A DNA stretch of 64,000 nt, taken from NCBI GenBank assembly GCA_947480015.1, contig CANKBS010000017.1, forward strand, positions 1 to 64,000, read 5' to 3'. The position numbers and the translations under genes were made by a program. The stretch comes from Sphingobacteriaceae bacterium. GTDB lineage: Bacteria; Bacteroidota; Bacteroidia; B-17B0; Aurantibacillaceae. Under the pieces are notes generated by a model. That model was not told the DNA's origin. It ran no database searches and saw only the letters and a program-made list of their open reading frames with translations. The first letter of the stretch is position 1, and every line of letters starts with the position of its first letter. Shown in pieces: positions 38,844 to 46,423 of the stretch.

Positions 38844-40547
38844 ATGTTTTTATTTATGCAAAACAGATTAGTTAGTTACTCACATAGTGTTGTAATTGCA
38901 GTAAAGGCTTTTTGTTTGCTTTTATTAAGTTCTCAATGCTTTGCACAAAATTATCACAATTATATCTGGCCCATCGATTCGCCTTTTTCGGTGACGGGTA
39001 ATTATGGTGAACTCCGACCCAATCATTTTCATGCCGGTATTGATTTTTCAACCCATGGTGTAATTAATTTACCCATTTATGCCGTGGAAGAGGGCTATGT
39101 GTCGCGCATTAGAGTGAGTACGACGGGTTACGGTAAATCAATTTACATCACACATCCCGATGGTAAAGTGAGCTTATACGCGCATTTAAATGTATTCAGT
39201 TTAAAGATTGCTAGCATCGCAAAAAAACAACAATACAACATTCAGAATTACGAATTTGATTTACTGCTGAAACCAAAAACTGTGTTTGTGATAAAAAACG
39301 AAATCATCGCTTTATCAGGCAATACAGGCAGTTCAACGGGGCCACATCTGCATTTCGAGATTCGCGATGAACTCAGTGAAACCCCACTCAATCCTTTTTT
39401 GTTTTATAAACTAACAGATAATAGCCCCCCTGAACTTTGGCATTTGGGTTTTTATGACCTGTCTGACACCTGCGACCCGAGATGGATGAACGGCGTTAAG
39501 GTTACACGCAATCACAACGATAGTTTGGTTTTAGCGGATGATCATTTGGTTCTCGAATATTCCATTGTTGGACTTTCATTTGCTGGTTTCGATCGTTTAT
39601 TTCCACTTGGAAATCCAAATAATATTTATTCGGCCGAACTGTATCTTGATGATCAACTTATTTATTCCCATACTTTGGATCACATTGATTTTGCCGATGG
39701 GCGCTATTGTAACGAATTTAGCGAAGCGATTGGGAAACATAAATATCAGAAATGTTTTTTGCCGGAGATGACGCCACCCGAAATGTATCATAATTGTATA
39801 AATAAAGGGCGACTCATATTAAATGATTCCGTTTATAAAAAACTTCGTTTAAAAGTGCAGGACGAGTTTGGTAACAGTTCATCACTGCAATGCTATGTGA
39901 AAGCACGCAAAATAAATGGATACAGAGGTTCCGCGATCAAAAGTGATTTATTTGTGAAGTCTCACGAGAATTTTGATTTGGCAAAAGATAATGTACAAAT
40001 ACACATACCTGCTAATACCTTATATTATTCAACCCCCATTATTATCGAGAATACCATTGCCAGCAGTGGCAAATTAATTATTTTGCCCCGAGAAGCCAAC
40101 CTGCGCTCGCCTTATACATTGGGATTGGCGGTGCCTGAAAGATACAGAGCGCATGCAGAACAACTGGTTTTAAGGAGCGGTAAAAGTGTGTTTACTCCGG
40201 TGCTTAGAAATGATTCACTCTTTTATTCCTTAAAGAATTTCGATTGGTATCATCTTGAACTCGACACCCTGCCTCCACAAATAAAAACTGAGTATTCTTC
40301 CCGTAAATTAAAGGAGGTCTGGAAAATGGATTCCTTTTCCTTTCATATTACCGATCATTTAAGCGGCGTAGGAAGATACAATGTGTGGCTCAATAATATC
40401 TGGGTACTTGCAGAGTATGATACAAAAACCGATTTACTGACTTATTACTTCGACGAGGAAACGCCCATTGGTTTGTTACAGTATAGAGTGGAAGTGATTG
40501 ACAGGGTTGGCAATAAAAAGTACTTCGATTATTTATTAAAAAAGTAA
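38844..40547 (+). CDS. M23 family metallopeptidase (LytM domain)
   Basis: 567 residues. Signal peptide to about residue 35 (LLLLSSQCFAQ). The LytM domain is N-terminal: HFHAGIDFSTHG (His63, Asp67) and STGPHLHFEIRD (His168, His170) supply the zinc ligands and catalytic His. The remaining about 380 residues form beta-rich domains of unknown role. Probably a peptidoglycan endopeptidase or a murein-hydrolase activator. Last gene of the envelope operon; its stop is one base from the convergent wbqC stop. Confidence 0.88.
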   Translation: MFLFMQNRLVSYSHSVVIAVKAFCLLLLSSQCFAQNYHNYIWPIDSPFSVTGNYGELRPNHFHAGIDFSTHGVINLPIYAVEEGYVSRIRVSTTGYGKSIYITHPDGKVSLYAHLNVFSLKIASIAKKQQYNIQNYEFDLLLKPKTVFVIKNEIIALSGNTGSSTGPHLHFEIRDELSETPLNPFLFYKLTDNSPPELWHLGFYDLSDTCDPRWMNGVKVTRNHNDSLVLADDHLVLEYSIVGLSFAGFDRLFPLGNPNNIYSAELYLDDQLIYSHTLDHIDFADGRYCNEFSEAIGKHKYQKCFLPEMTPPEMYHNCINKGRLILNDSVYKKLRLKVQDEFGNSSSLQCYVKARKINGYRGSAIKSDLFVKSHENFDLAKDNVQIHIPANTLYYSTPIIIENTIASSGKLIILPREANLRSPYTLGLAVPERYRAHAEQLVLRSGKSVFTPVLRNDSLFYSLKNFDWYHLELDTLPPQIKTEYSSRKLKEVWKMDSFSFHITDHLSGVGRYNVWLNNIWVLAEYDTKTDLLTYYFDEETPIGLLQYRVEVIDRVGNKKYFDYLLKK

Positions 40548-41171
40548 TTATTTTTTTAAATAAGGAATCGATTCTAAACCCCGGTTAAAGATCAAATCAA
40601 GAATACTAAGATTCGGAATAAAATTAAATTTAGCTTCAAAGGTCTGGTAATAGTTTTTTTGAAGCTTATCCGACACCTCCGTATCATTTTTGAAACTTAG
40701 TTTCGGATGAATCAATTCTCTCAGATCACTAAAATTTTCCGGTGTTTTTTGATAGGAATTGGTAAACGTGATTTCTTTTTTGAGTTTTAAAATTTTTAAA
40801 ACGCATTGGATCTGTTCTAATTCGTAATGCACTAACAGTTCGTATTTATTGGTGTAAAATTTGCCGATCTCCGATTCAAAATAGTCGAAGTAAGGCGAAT
40901 TGCTGTAAGCGCTTTCAATGGCCCGCCAGTGTTTTTGTGGCCAGTTTTCGGCATAACTTATTTGAATGTCTTTGCTTAGTTCTTTGGCAGCCTGTTTTAC
41001 AACAGGAATCGACAGGTCAAGCACGCCATTCGCAGTTAAAATTTGAGTGCGATTTCTGAAACTTTGTTTTTGATAATTTTCATACTGCTCAATTTGTACC
41101 GATTCGGAATTAAGCAAGTAATAGAAAAAATGTAAATTAGGCCAGTATGCCGTGCTTAAAAGTACTTTCAT
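40548..41171 (-). CDS. WbqC family protein
   Basis: 207 residues. LLSTAYWPNLHFFYYLLNSE at the start, the ENYQKQSFRNRTQILTANG region, and LDLSIPV match WbqC-like proteins, with ENWPQKHWRAIESAYSNSPY as the second conserved block. The family is found in polysaccharide loci and has no fixed biochemical role. Its start overlaps the end of the signal-peptidase-like gene by 4 nt. Confidence 0.85.
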   Translation of the reverse strand: MKVLLSTAYWPNLHFFYYLLNSESVQIEQYENYQKQSFRNRTQILTANGVLDLSIPVVKQAAKELSKDIQISYAENWPQKHWRAIESAYSNSPYFDYFESEIGKFYTNKYELLVHYELEQIQCVLKILKLKKEITFTNSYQKTPENFSDLRELIHPKLSFKNDTEVSDKLQKNYYQTFEAKFNFIPNLSILDLIFNRGLESIPYLKK

Positions 41172-42010
41172 TTGGCATGCTTTAATACGGCAATTACTTT
41201 CCCTTTAATTTTATCTTCCGGTAAAAAACCCCATACCCGTGAGTCGTTAGCATTATCACGGTTATCGGCCAATACAAAATAATAGTTTTTCTTTACAAGG
41301 TAGGTGCTAGTGAGCGAACCGTTAATGAAAATACTGTCGTGTTTTACGTCCAGATTATTTTTTTCATATTCCTTAATTAACATGCTGTAGATAGCTAAAT
41401 TAATGGTATCAAGTTGAAGGGTATCGTTTTTTTTAGGGAGATACATTTTACCATACTGATCTAAATTCCAGGCATAACATTTGGAGCCCGGAAAACAGAG
41501 CTGATCAAAATTATTCACTTTTTCTTTTTTTAATTCAACTGATTTAATCAGCGAATCTTTTTTTAAAGCCTCGGCTTCTACATTGGTTAAAGAAAAACTA
41601 TAGTCAAACTCATCGGAGATTTCGCCGCCTTCGGTAATATGATATCTGAGTTTAAATAAACTGTCGAGTTTAACTTTATGTGTTTTTACAAAATAGTTAT
41701 GCTTGATGCTTTGAGGAGGATGTAAACCAAATCCATTTAAAAACACTTGTTTGTCTTGTAATTGCACCGAGTCGCCGGGTAAGCCGTAAATACGTTGAAC
41801 CAGATAAGTTTTTATGCCAGAACTATCGGGTACCGGAAATTCAAAACACACAACGTCTTCGGTATGGTAGGCATTAAATGCTTTTTTTACCAACACCGCG
41901 TCACCCAAACTGTAAGTGGCTTCCATGTCGTGACTGTTAATACGCATCACATCTAAAACAAGTAATTTAATCAGTATAAAAAGGGCCAGGGCAGTTACTG
42001 CACTAAACAA
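41168..42010 (-). CDS. Signal peptidase I paralogue lacking the catalytic dyad
   Basis: About 280 residues. The SPase I boxes are recognisable but altered. In box B, INSHDMEATY replaces IPSGSMxPTL, putting Asp28 in place of the nucleophilic Ser. In box D, LVQRIYGLPGD has Gln72 where the general-base Lys should be. In box E, ADNRDNANDSR replaces GDNRxNSxDSR. The frame is intact. The start is uncertain: a TTG at 42010 is the only ordinary start, but the frame reads INHILNYLRSTNW upstream into the end of the active peptidase gene with only AUA/AUC candidates. It is immediately downstream of that gene. Confidence 0.75.
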   Translation of the reverse strand: MFSAVTALALFILIKLLVLDVMRINSHDMEATYSLGDAVLVKKAFNAYHTEDVVCFEFPVPDSSGIKTYLVQRIYGLPGDSVQLQDKQVFLNGFGLHPPQSIKHNYFVKTHKVKLDSLFKLRYHITEGGEISDEFDYSFSLTNVEAEALKKDSLIKSVELKKEKVNNFDQLCFPGSKCYAWNLDQYGKMYLPKKNDTLQLDTINLAIYSMLIKEYEKNNLDVKHDSIFINGSLTSTYLVKKNYYFVLADNRDNANDSRVWGFLPEDKIKGKVIAVLKHAK

Positions 42011-42045
42011 CCAATTGGTGCTTCTTAGGTAATTAAGTATGTGGT

Positions 42046-43911
42046 TTATTTTGCCGATGCTTTTTCTAATTTCAATTTACGGCGATGGTTCCATTTGTTG
42101 AAACCCCAAATGCCTAAAATGACAGCTAGGAAAGGAGTTTTAACCGAGTGAAGTGTTCCGTCTTCCACATAACAGAGAAAACGACCCCAACGGAATTTAC
42201 CTTCTTGTGCGTTTTTAAATAAAGAGCCTAAAACAGATTTTCCACTCACCGGATTGTTTTCAGAATACTTCATACTAAACCAAACAAAAAAGGGCGAACC
42301 AACAATGTGATCATACGGAACTAATCCCCAACTTCTGCTATCGGCACTGTTGTGACGGTTATCACCCATCATAAAATAATAATCCTGTTTAAAGGTATAG
42401 CTGCTAATTGGTTTACCATCATATAAAACTTGTGCACCTTGTTTTGAAATTTGATGAATGCCATTGTCATAGGTGTTTAGTACTTTTTCATACAAACAAA
42501 TGTTGTGTGTATCAAGAGGGATGGTCATGCCGGCCTTTGGTAACAAAAGCGGGCCAAAATTATCGTTGTTCCATGCATAAGCAGGATTATGCGGGAAATT
42601 TTTTGAATCGTATGAATTGGCCATATCCACGCGTTTAAACACGTGATAAACGTTTGGATCGTTTTTTACTTTTTCGGCGGTGGCTTCGGTCATATTTAAG
42701 CAATAAACCGTGGTATCTGAGGTATTAAAGGTGGTTTTGAAAAGTTTTACATCCACATTTTTTAAAGGGTAATAACCTTGATTAGCCCCGGTGATCGGTT
42801 CCAAAAAGATCATTTGTTTCCCATCAGAACTTCCGGCAGAGGCTCTCAGAGCTTCAGTAACGTAGATATCCAGATTATCCAGATAATCAATGGAAATAAA
42901 ATTAGATTTGGCTTTTACAAAATAATGGTGCTGTGCCATTTTAGGCATGGTTTGTTTCACATCATTGATAAAAATTTCACCGTTTACAATTTTTAATTTA
43001 TCACCGGCAATGGCCACACAGCGTTTCACATAGTGATCGCGTTTATCTATGGGCCTGCCAACTATTTCGCCAAACTGCGCTTTATTGGTGTTCACATAAT
43101 TCCAAACCTTTTCGTAAATGGCATTTTTATTGACATTCGGATCTTTTGATTCGGCGATTTCACTTTCGGCAATGTCGCGTACAATTTGATAATAACTCGA
43201 GTTTTGATGTTTGAGCGCCACCGTATCACCATCAGGGTAATTAAAAACAACAATCTGATTATTTTTTACTTTGCCGAAACCCGGCAATCTGAAATAAGGT
43301 AATTTGATCCACTCCAAATATGATTTTCTACTTTCGCTGAAAGGAAGGGTGTGATGTGCAAATGGAAAAGAAAGCGGTGTTTGCGGGATCTTAGGACCAT
43401 AAGCGAATTTATTCACAAATAAAAAGTCACCAACCATCAATGATTTTTCGAGTGAAGAAGTTGGAATCGTGAAGGCCTCAATAAAATAACCCCGAATGAT
43501 AGAAGCTGCAATAACCGCAAAGATGATAGGATCGATCCAGTTTTTAATCAGTTTACTGGGTTCTATTTTAAATTTACTTAAGCCAACAAATTTAGCGGTA
43601 TCATCAAACCCCAACTTAACAAAAAAGAGGTAAGGTAAAACAGATGCGAACAGAAGATCTTGATTGCTTGGTTTATTAAAAGCACGGGCCACATTAAAAC
43701 CATAAACGCCATACATTAAAATGTTTACACCCGGTACAATCATGATTAAGCACCACCACCAAGGCTTTTCGAGTATTTTGGCCAGAACATAAAAGTTATA
43801 AACCGGGATCCAAGCCTTCCAGCTTTCGGTTCCAGCTTTTGTAAATAATTTACTGAGTCCGAAAAAAGAAGCCAGTACTAAGAGTAAAAAAATATAATTT
43901 CCCATAAACAT
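42046..43911 (-). CDS. lepB: Signal peptidase I with N-terminal DUF5684-like membrane domain
   Basis: 621 residues, about twice the usual size. Residues 1-105 form a membrane domain with SWKAWIPVYNFYVLAKILEK and PWWW, typical of DUF5684. SPase I follows: TIPTSSLEKSLMVGD with Ser153 as nucleophile, DHYVKRCVAIAGD with Lys296 as general base, and MGDNRHNSADSRSWG as box E. Long insertions separate boxes B-D and D-E, as usual in Bacteroidota. It removes signal peptides from Sec-exported proteins, here including many T9SS cargoes. Followed by its inactive paralogue. Confidence 0.9.
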   Translation of the reverse strand: MFMGNYIFLLLVLASFFGLSKLFTKAGTESWKAWIPVYNFYVLAKILEKPWWWCLIMIVPGVNILMYGVYGFNVARAFNKPSNQDLLFASVLPYLFFVKLGFDDTAKFVGLSKFKIEPSKLIKNWIDPIIFAVIAASIIRGYFIEAFTIPTSSLEKSLMVGDFLFVNKFAYGPKIPQTPLSFPFAHHTLPFSESRKSYLEWIKLPYFRLPGFGKVKNNQIVVFNYPDGDTVALKHQNSSYYQIVRDIAESEIAESKDPNVNKNAIYEKVWNYVNTNKAQFGEIVGRPIDKRDHYVKRCVAIAGDKLKIVNGEIFINDVKQTMPKMAQHHYFVKAKSNFISIDYLDNLDIYVTEALRASAGSSDGKQMIFLEPITGANQGYYPLKNVDVKLFKTTFNTSDTTVYCLNMTEATAEKVKNDPNVYHVFKRVDMANSYDSKNFPHNPAYAWNNDNFGPLLLPKAGMTIPLDTHNICLYEKVLNTYDNGIHQISKQGAQVLYDGKPISSYTFKQDYYFMMGDNRHNSADSRSWGLVPYDHIVGSPFFVWFSMKYSENNPVSGKSVLGSLFKNAQEGKFRWGRFLCYVEDGTLHSVKTPFLAVILGIWGFNKWNHRRKLKLEKASAK

Positions 43912-44029
43912 CGAGTGTGAAGATATGTAATTTAAATAAATCGTAAACGCTTCAAGGTAAAAAGGAATTGTGTAAGCCTTGTTAATAATTGTTAGTCGTT
44001 GATTTGCGGCGCTTATCCTTGCTTTGAAC

Positions 44030-44055
44030 CACCCTTCGGCAGGCTCAGGGCAAGC
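44030..44055 (+). repeat. REP-like element, copy 1
   Basis: CCCTTCGGCAGGCTCAGGG is an imperfect palindrome around GGCTCAGGG. The reverse complement of the copy at 44191-44215 aligns closely with it. CCTTCG...CTCAGGGT elements of this kind are familiar in Bacteroidota intergenic DNA (recalled, not checked). Confidence 0.55.
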
Positions 44056-44190
44056 ATCTGAGCATATAAAAGCACATAATATGACATGTGAGTTTTTTCA
44101 AACTGTTTTGATCTTTAACCCCTTTGAACCATTTTAAACTCCTTTGAACCCTTGAACCTTTGAACCCTTGAACCTTTGAACCATTTACAC

Positions 44191-44215
44191 GTCACCCTGA
44201 GCCAGTCGAAGGGTG
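44191..44215 (-). repeat. REP-like element, copy 2 (inverted)
   Basis: CACCCTGAGCCAGTCGAAGG is the inverted counterpart of the element at 44030-44055; the pair brackets the first block of TTGAAC repeats and could form a long stem. Confidence 0.55.
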
Positions 44216-44360
44216 AACTCCTTTGAACCTTTGAACTCTTGAACCTTTGAACCATTTGAACTTTTGAACCATCCTGAACTCCTTTGAACCTTTGAACTCT
44301 TTTGAACCCTTTTAAACGCTTCTTTAAACAATTTTCCCTATATTTACTCTCGAAAATTAA

Positions 44361-44379
44361 ACCTGCGTTGTTTGCAGGT
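44361..44379 (+). other. Small hairpin in the thrS leader
   Basis: ACCTGC (44361-44366) pairs with GCAGGT (44374-44379) across a 7-nt loop, ending 12 nt before the thrS ATG. It might affect translation or act in regulation, but no tRNA-like or T-box sequence is apparent. Confidence 0.3.
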
Positions 44380-44391
44380 CTGCTATAAAAT

Positions 44392-46341
44392 ATGATAAAA
44401 ATTACGTTACCCGATGGTTCTGTTCGTGAGTATGAAAAAGGAACGTCATCACTGCAAATCGCTCAAAGCATTAGCGAAGGCTTAGCAAGAAATGTTCTAG
44501 CCGCAAAAGTCAATAACGAAGTGTGGGACGCCGGAAGGCCCATAAACGCTGACTCTTCAATTAACCTCTTAACGTGGAACGATACCCTTGGCAAAGAAAC
44601 CATGTGGCACTCCTCTGCGCATTTAATGGCCGAAGCTCTTGAAGCTTTGTATCCGGGAGTGAAATTCTGGGTTGGACCACCATTAGAAAACGGATTTTAT
44701 TACGATGTTGATTTAAATGGTCAAGTGCTCACCCCGGCCGATTTTGAAAAGATCGAGCAAAAAATGCTGGAATTAGCCCGACAAAATAATACCTATATCC
44801 GTAAAGAGATTTCAAAAGCTGACGCCATCACTTATTTTAAAGATAAGGATGATGTGTATAAATTAGATCTCTTAGAACGCCTTGAAGATGGCACTATCAC
44901 GCTTTACACACAGGGTAATTTTACTGATCTCTGTCGTGGTCCGCATATACCAAATACCGGATTTATTAAAGCTGCAAAAATTTTAAACATTGCCGGTGCT
45001 TATTGGAAAGGCGATGAAAAAAATAAAATGCTTACCCGTATTTATGGCATTACTTTTCCTAAAGACAAGGAATTAAAAGAATACCTGGTGATGTTGGAGG
45101 AAGCGAAAAAACGCGACCACCGTAAGCTTGGCAAGGAATTGGAATTATTCACCTTCTCCGAAAAAGTTGGTTTGGGTTTACCCTTATGGTTACCAAAAGG
45201 TGCCATGTTGCGCGAACGTTTAATTCAGTTTATGCAAAAAGCACAAACCAAAGCAGGTTACCTGCCAGTGGTTACACCGCACATTGCATTGAAAGATCTT
45301 TATGTGTGTTCGGGACATTACGAAAAATACGGATCCGATTCTTTTCAACCCATTAAAACACCGCATGAAGGCGAAGAGTTTTTCCTTAAACCGATGAACT
45401 GTCCGCATCACTGCGAAATTTATAAATCTTCACCAAAATCTTACAAAGATTTACCGGTGCGTTATGCGGAGTTTGGCACTGTTTACCGTTACGAGCAAAA
45501 AGGTGAATTGCACGGTTTAACCCGTGTGCGTGGCTTTACACAGGATGATGCGCACTTATTTGTACGTCCCGATCAGGTGAAAGAAGAATTTTGCAAAGTG
45601 ATTGATTTGGTGATGTATGTTTTTAATGCCTTGGATTTTAAAGATTATACGGCGCAAATTTCGTTACGTGATCCTGAAAATAAAGAAAAATACATTGGCA
45701 GCGATGAGAACTGGAAACTGGCCGAGCAAGCTATTATTGAGTCGTCAGCTGAAAAGGGATTGCGCACGGTAGTAGAATTGGGTGAAGCGGCTTTTTATGG
45801 CCCTAAACTCGATTTTATGGTGAAAGATGCCTTAGGCCGTAAGTGGCAACTAGGTACCATTCAGGTGGATTACAATTTACCTGAACGTTTTGAGTTGGAA
45901 TACACCGGTAGCGATAACCTCAAACACCGTCCGGTTATGATTCACCGTGCACCATTTGGAAGTTTAGAGCGTTTTATAGCAGTATTAATCGAGCATTGTG
46001 CCGGTAATTTCCCGCTTTGGTTAACGCCCGATCAAATTGCCATCTTACCTATTTCTGAAAAATATAACGATTACGCTCAAAATGTATTAAATTTATTGAG
46101 TAATTTTGATGTGCGCGGATTTGTGGATGATAGAAACGAGAAGATTGGTAAAAAGATTCGCGATAATGAGATCAAAAAAATTCCGTTCATGTTGGTAGTG
46201 GGAGAGAAAGAAGAAGCCGAGCAAACAGTTGCCGTTAGAGCACACGGAAAAGGTGATATAGGCTCATTTGCCATTGCCGATTTTGCAGCCTATTTAAACG
46301 AATTGATCTTAAGTGATTTTAAACAAAAAGAAGCAAATTAA
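44392..46341 (+). CDS. thrS: Threonyl-tRNA synthetase
   Basis: 649 residues. TGS domain 1-65; editing domain with [11 protein letters not shown] (HxxxH) near 73; class II core with motif 2 [20 protein letters not shown], the zinc-binding region [14 protein letters not shown], and motif 3 [13 protein letters not shown]; anticodon-binding domain at the C-terminus ([30 protein letters not shown]). Charges tRNA-Thr and edits Ser-tRNA-Thr. Upstream of infC, the usual bacterial order. Confidence 0.97.
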
Positions 46342-46410: not shown

Positions 46411-46423
46411 GGAGGCTACCATC
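46411..46423 (+). promoter_or_regulatory. Shine-Dalgarno and AUC start codon of infC
   Basis: GGAGG at 46411-46415 is followed after 5 nt (CTACC) by ATC at 46421. The frame is closed upstream by TAA at 46403-46405 and no ATG exists before 46481, so AUC is the best-placed start. Non-standard starts (AUU/AUC/AUA) on infC let IF-3 discriminate against its own mRNA. Confidence 0.8.

What the first reader, a model, noticed from the sequence alone, without database searches (positions are those of the whole stretch)
41168..42010. A signal peptidase I paralogue without catalytic Ser or Lys, next to the active enzyme
Box B reads INSHDMEATY (Asp at the nucleophile position), box D reads VQRIYGLPGD (Gln in place of the general-base Lys), and box E has lost its Ser. 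The neighbour at 42046-43911 keeps both residues. The inactive copy has an intact 280-codon frame, so it looks maintained. It may bind signal peptides or the active LepB and modulate processing in this T9SS-secreting organism. I know of no described role for such a pair.
Basis: partly seen in the sequence, partly recalled or inferred. Interest (0 to 1): 0.75.

Follow-up and report, generated by a model that had tools for sequence, protein, structure and literature searches.

The report
Conserved dead signal peptidase beside lepB
Next to its only working signal peptidase, this Bacteroidota lineage keeps a second copy that has lost both cutting residues, yet the same two replacements are preserved in nearly all of 43 relatives, so it is a maintained protein that presumably binds rather than cuts; comparable dead copies are known in Staphylococcus and Streptococcus.

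Summary
The gene at window 41168 to about 42058 (minus strand) is a signal peptidase I (S26) paralogue with Asp for the nucleophile Ser and Gln for the general-base Lys. It lies between the intact lepB and wbqC. It is not decaying: in 43 orthologues from three genera the Asp is kept in 42 and the Gln in 42, the dyad is never restored, all frames are open, and dN/dS is 0.035-0.046 in the least saturated pairs. It sits beside lepB in 34 of 35 testable congeners (one clean loss). AlphaFold gives a confident S26 fold (pLDDT 95.8) with hydrophobic cleft positions retained. Sister genera hold active copies in the same gene place, so catalysis was probably lost secondarily. Best reading: a membrane-anchored, non-cleaving binder of signal peptides/preproteins or accessory of LepB; that function is inferred, not shown. 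The kind is known (S. aureus SpsA beside SpsB; S. pyogenes SipA). New here are the lineage, the near-invariant Asp/Gln pair, and an unexpected start: many orthologues have no ATG/GTG/TTG before the membrane helix, and ATC or CTG occupies one aligned position overlapping the lepB end. infC in the same genus also appears to start at AUC/AUU.

The parts
41168..42058 (-). pseudo-signal-peptidase gene (dead S26 paralogue), from the inferred ATC start to the TGA stop; open frame extends to 42076
   Evidence: S26 by PF10502/TIGR02227 and by fold
42056..42058 (-). inferred non-AUG start codon ATC, overlapping the lepB 3' end (lepB stop TAA 42048-42046)
   Evidence: codon 15 before the conserved Trp is ATC in 15, CTG in 4, ATG in 1 of 32 orthologues
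42008..42010 (-).
41948..42013 (-). N-terminal membrane helix, from the conserved Trp (WLFSAVTALALFILIKLLVLDV)
   Evidence: sequence; helix 4-23 in the model
41912..41941 (-). box B, INSHDMEATY: Asp replaces the nucleophile Ser; Met91 equivalent retained
41771..41803 (-). box D, LVQRIYGLPGD: Gln replaces the general-base Lys; Arg146 equivalent retained
41225..41269 (-). box E, ADNRDNANDSRVWGF: Ser278 equivalent is Ala here (Ser in 7 of 43 orthologues)
42046..43911 (-). lepB, active-type signal peptidase I with intact Ser/Lys
40548..41171 (-). wbqC-like gene, ATG overlapping the pseudo-lepB stop (ATGA)
   Evidence: (PF08889)

Best explanation
It is a maintained pseudoenzyme of signal peptidase I, made from the middle gene of a lepB - pseudo-lepB - wbqC gene run. 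SHOWN (sequence): the Ser-Lys dyad is gone; Asp and Gln took their places and stay almost invariant; the gene is under purifying selection and stays beside lepB. PREDICTED with high confidence: one N-terminal membrane helix carrying an S26 domain, which by analogy with LepB lies in the periplasm. INFERRED: the protein sits in the inner membrane near LepB, uses the retained S26 cleft to hold a signal peptide, a preprotein segment or LepB itself without cutting it, and so assists, delays or directs processing of some envelope cargo. Its synthesis appears coupled to lepB translation and started from a near-cognate non-AUG codon, which would keep it below LepB in amount.
For: Asp 42/43 and Gln 42/43, within the 19 most conserved of 302 sites, while P87, S88 and S278 equivalents drift. 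No orthologue in genera g1, g25 or g157 has Ser/Lys. dN/dS 0.035-0.046 where dS is 0.65-1.33, near lepB's 0.017-0.044 in the same pairs. Hydrophobic side chains at the S1/S3-pocket equivalents: I86 42/43, M91 43/43, L95 43/43, V132 43/43, I144 40/43. AlphaFold pLDDT 95.8, pTM 0.90; best solved matches are E. coli LepB (Z 16.4), S. pyogenes SipA (Z 16.3) and S. aureus SpsB (Z 15.7). lepB - dead copy - wbqC order across g1, g25 and g157. S26 copies with intact Ser/Lys beside lepB in g156 and g159 and directly upstream of wbqC in g160 and g163. Precedent: SipA keeps the cleft, lacks the dyad and is required for pilus polymerisation.
Against: No partner, ligand or phenotype is known; retained hydrophobic positions may be structural only. 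One congener (G004) has lost the gene cleanly, lepB being followed by wbqC, so it is dispensable at least there. In SipA, pull-downs and peptide assays found no binding, and its Asp is neither conserved nor needed, so the analogy is imperfect. The start codon is inferred, not measured.
Confidence: 0.5

Rival explanations
1. A decaying duplicate of lepB that simply has not yet been lost.
For: Faster evolution than lepB (longer end branches in the tree); one clean loss, G004; weak or missing canonical start codon in many species.
Against: All 43 orthologues have intact frames; dN/dS 0.035-0.046; Asp/Gln nearly invariant across three genera.
Confidence: 0.03
2. A regulatory or structural subunit of LepB that acts by protein-protein contact and does not use its cleft.
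For: Near-constant adjacency to and overlap with lepB, which suggests matched synthesis.
Against: The cleft positions remain hydrophobic and residues around the former active site (M91, R146, D273, R275, D280, R282 equivalents) are invariant; adjacency to wbqC is just as tight.
Confidence: 0.2
3. A pathway-specific assembly factor, as SipA is for pili, tied to envelope glycan or surface-protein assembly through wbqC rather than to general signal-peptide processing.
For: The second S26 gene lies directly upstream of wbqC in g160 and g163 too, where lepB is not within the fetched region; second copies with lost or odd dyad upstream of wbqC also occur in distant Bacteroidota (L101, L103, L105).
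Against: The function of WbqC-like proteins is not established; no surface-polymer locus was sought or found here.
Confidence: 0.2
4. A protease that uses Asp/Gln or another residue for catalysis.
For: Near-invariance of both residues.
Against: No S26 enzyme is known to use Asp/Gln (general knowledge); in SipA the equivalent Asp can be mutated without effect and no peptidase activity was seen.
Confidence: 0.03
5. It is made mainly as a LepB-pseudo-LepB fusion by ribosomal frameshifting at the lepB stop, not as a separate protein.
For: Most congeners overlap in the -1 frame at the lepB stop, several with A AAA TAA, and many lack a canonical start.
Against: The frame relation is -1, +1 or the same among congeners; L239 and its close relatives L017-L025 differ in relation yet keep the same N-terminus; the slippery A AAA is not conserved (C AAA in several); L010 and L012 have the frame closed between lepB and the gene.
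Confidence: 0.06

Closest known systems
Staphylococcus aureus SpsA (with active SpsB)
   Same: Dispensable signal peptidase I homologue lacking two conserved catalytic residues in a genome with one essential active enzyme (PMC12445088). From memory: spsA directly precedes spsB and also has Asp for Ser.
   Different: Gram-positive; order dead-then-active rather than active-then-dead (from memory); no wbqC; substitution at Lys differs (Ser, from memory).
Streptococcus pyogenes SipA (pilus locus)
   Same: S26 fold, Asp at the Ser position, no Lys, no peptidase activity, retained peptide cleft (PMC4049620); structural match Z 16.3, 1.9 A over 129 residues.
   Different: Lies in a pilus locus, not beside lepB; Gly rather than Gln at Lys (one orthologue here, L036, is Asp/Gly); its Asp is not conserved and not needed, unlike the near-invariant pair here; lacks the large insert of the Bacteroidota proteins.
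Bacteroidota LepB second copies with intact dyad
   Same: Same family, same large insert, same gene place; found in g156, g159, g160, g163 and, as tandem copies, in other Bacteroidota records.
   Different: Those keep Ser/Lys; this copy has lost them.

Membership tests
Peptidase family S26 (signal peptidase I fold) | Profile match over curated cut-off | tested here: met
   PF10502 102.6 bits (cut-off 22.9), TIGR02227 108.5 bits (cut-off 47)
Peptidase family S26 (signal peptidase I fold) | SPase core fold after an N-terminal membrane helix | tested here: met
   pLDDT 95.8; Z 16.4 to E. coli LepB, 15.7 to SpsB
Active type I signal peptidase | Ser nucleophile and Lys general base | tested here: not met
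   Asp and Gln in the window; 42/43 and 42/43 in orthologues
SpsA-like inactive SPase beside an active one | Dead S26 copy adjacent to an intact lepB in the same genome | tested here: met
SpsA-like inactive SPase beside an active one | Orthology with staphylococcal SpsA | not tested
   No staphylococcal sequence was put in the tree; here it groups with Bacteroidota second copies, so a convergent loss is likely
SipA-like pilus assembly factor | Dead S26 with retained peptide cleft | tested here: met
   cleft positions hydrophobic in 40-43 of 43; fold match Z 16.3 to 4n31
SipA-like pilus assembly factor | Encoded in a sortase pilus locus | tested here: not met
   Immediate neighbours are lepB and wbqC
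SipA-like pilus assembly factor | Required for assembly of a surface polymer | not testable with these tools
   needs a deletion strain

The most novel reading that the evidence does not exclude
The gene is a dedicated, low-abundance non-cleaving partner of LepB whose dose is set by a non-AUG (AUC/CUG) start codon overlapping the lepB 3' end. IF3 would discriminate against that codon as it does at infC, so preprotein processing would be tied to the state of the translation machinery.
Probability: 0.15. Interest if true: 0.75.

Novelty: new variant of a known kind. Interest (0 to 1): 0.5.

Why it matters
Signal peptidase I is essential and an antibiotic target. A dead copy kept beside it for the depth of several genera, with two near-invariant replacement residues, says that the S26 fold has a useful role without cutting. 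It gives a natural comparison set: active copy in sister genera, dead copy here, clean loss in one species. Because the pattern recurs in staphylococci, streptococci and here, it makes the open question of what SpsA-type proteins do testable. The non-AUG start, if confirmed, adds a rare case of near-cognate initiation outside infC and pcnB.

Tried and rejected
Pseudogene or decay: rejected on dN/dS and conservation. Conserved programmed -1 frameshift to a fusion: unlikely, because the frame relation to lepB changes between close relatives while the N-terminus does not. AUA at codon -12 overlapping the lepB stop as start: less likely, since that column is CTA, CTT, TTA or TTT in many species; but positions -15, -12, -9, -8 and -5 show a hydrophobic, amphipathic-helix-like pattern, so Ile/Leu at -15 could be an ordinary residue. 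Single origin of the Asp/Gln state: the tree needs 2 changes because g162 (mostly intact Ser/Lys, long branches) joins g157; monophyly is not rejected (p-AU 0.356). Rfam elements in 40400-44500: none. Promoter and terminator scans: not above shuffled expectation. Literature on lepB paralogues in Bacteroidetes: no paper on dead copies found in the open-access library. The structure job was given only window and the search for related loci sequences, as that tool asks. Co-folding with LepB was not available.

Full report
OBSERVATION. The minus-strand frame at 41168-42010 encodes a protein that passes the signal peptidase I profiles (PF10502 102.6 bits; TIGR02227 108.5 bits). Box B is INSHDMEATY, box D LVQRIYGLPGD and box E ADNRDNANDSR; lepB next door has TIPTSSLEKSL, YVKRCVAIAGD and MMGDNRHNSADSR. 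So Asp stands at the nucleophile and Gln at the general base. These are the only two S26 genes found in this 3.77 Mb genome. The downstream gene is WbqC-like (PF08889), and its ATG overlaps the stop of the paralogue.

CONSERVATION. In the genus of the window, an orthologue lies directly beside lepB in 34 of the 35 genomes where the place can be seen; the exception, G004, has lepB followed directly by wbqC. Genomes with missing or broken loci (G005, G009, G028, G031, G328) were not counted. Two more genera of the family (g25, g157) also carry it, giving 43 sequences. The nucleophile position is Asp in 42 and Gln in one (L011); the general-base position is Gln in 42 and Gly in one (L036). Both sites rank within the 19 most conserved of 302. 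The box E Ser is Ala in 33 and Ser in 7, so its loss is not part of the fixed pattern. In pairs where dS is not saturated, dN/dS is 0.035-0.046 against 0.017-0.044 for lepB; more distant pairs are near or beyond saturation and were given no weight.

ORIGIN. Within the same family, genera g159 and g156 have a second S26 copy beside lepB with intact Ser/Lys, and g160 and g163 have an intact copy directly upstream of wbqC; g162 has a short copy beside lepB that mostly keeps Ser/Lys, one member with Ser to Ala. The Asp/Gln copies and the g162 copies form one clade apart from the other second copies (100/100). A single origin of Asp/Gln is neither shown nor rejected (p-AU 0.356). Other second or third copies with a lost or odd dyad, upstream of wbqC, occur in distant Bacteroidota (L101 Asn/Ser, L103 Arg/Ser, L105 box D Met), so loss of catalysis in this gene place looks recurrent. 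That last point rests on few sequences and on an alignment of divergent rows.

STRUCTURE. AlphaFold on a 38-sequence alignment gives pLDDT 95.8 and pTM 0.90: one N-terminal helix, then an S26 domain. The best solved matches by VIA-align are E. coli LepB (Z 16.4, 2.4 A over 148), S. pyogenes SipA (Z 16.3, 1.9 A over 129) and S. aureus SpsB (Z 15.7); Foldseek agrees on the family. Positions equivalent to I86, M91, L95, V132 and I144 of E. coli LepB, which line the S1/S3 pockets, are hydrophobic in 40-43 of 43 (pocket assignment and numbering from general knowledge). M91, R146, D273, N274, R275, D280, S281 and R282 equivalents are invariant. This fits a retained cleft without a catalytic dyad, as described for SipA.

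START CODON. The TTG at 42010 follows the conserved Trp at the head of the membrane helix. Across 34 congeners, 14 have no ATG, GTG or TTG between the upstream in-frame stop and the helix, and one more (L016) has one only inside the helix. Aligned on the Trp, the codon 15 positions before it is ATC in 15, CTG in 4 and ATG in 1 of 32. In L015 and L016 an in-frame stop lies only two codons upstream of that CTG, which excludes an earlier start in that frame. Outgroup genera mostly have an ordinary ATG near the lepB stop. Frameshifting is unlikely as a general mechanism because the frame relation to lepB varies. In the same window infC, listed from GTG 46481, has an in-frame ATC at 46421 behind GGAGG, and ATC or ATT behind GGAGG stands at this place in the congeners that could be read. 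So AUC initiation is very likely used in this genus. In E. coli infC and pcnB start at AUU, and IF3 discriminates against its own AUU start (PMC9410913). An AUC/CUG start for the paralogue is therefore the best reading but stays an inference; the hydrophobic pattern at -15, -12, -9, -8 and -5 allows Ile/Leu at -15 as ordinary residues.

FUNCTION. Shown: dead by sequence, maintained, linked to lepB and wbqC. Predicted: membrane-anchored S26 domain with a cleft. Inferred: it binds a signal peptide, preprotein or LepB and does not cut. I give about 0.5 to the cleft-using binder/accessory model, 0.2 to a cleft-independent LepB subunit and 0.2 to a pathway-specific assembly factor. The organism has at least 150 T9SS C-terminal-domain matches, but nothing links this gene to T9SS.

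COMPARISON. Dead signal peptidases are a known kind: SpsA in S. aureus (PMC12445088) and SipA in S. pyogenes (PMC4049620). The main difference from SipA is that its Asp is not conserved and can be mutated without effect, whereas the Asp/Gln pair here is nearly invariant over three genera. I found no paper on dead LepB copies in Bacteroidota in the library searched.

Noticed in passing
window 46411-46423 (+) and loci L249-L271: infC is listed from GTG 46481, but an in-frame ATC at 46421 behind GGAGG is very likely the true start; AUC/AUU behind GGAGG stands at this place in the congeners that could be read.
   Followed up: yes
window about 41530-41735 (-), model residues 108-174: Part of the large insert of the dead copy has a ferredoxin-like fold resembling subtilisin propeptides (Z about 6.5-7.9 over some 60 residues). 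It may be only a common arrangement.
   Followed up: no
L101:4633-5718, L103:3911-4960, L105:4713-5609, L117:511-1683, L088:3893-4948: Further tandem S26 copies with lost or odd dyad residues in distant Bacteroidota, three of them directly upstream of wbqC.
   Followed up: partly
L048:1538-2563 (third S26 paralogue in the same genus): A third S26 paralogue (L040-L049) keeps Ser/Lys in most species but has Ser for Lys in L048.
   Followed up: no
L039 (G004:C32): Clean loss of the dead copy: lepB is followed directly by wbqC.
   Followed up: yes
window 44050-44340 (-): Upstream of lepB the non-coding stretch is full of degenerate 'ggttcaaagg/agttcaaa' repeats.
   Followed up: no
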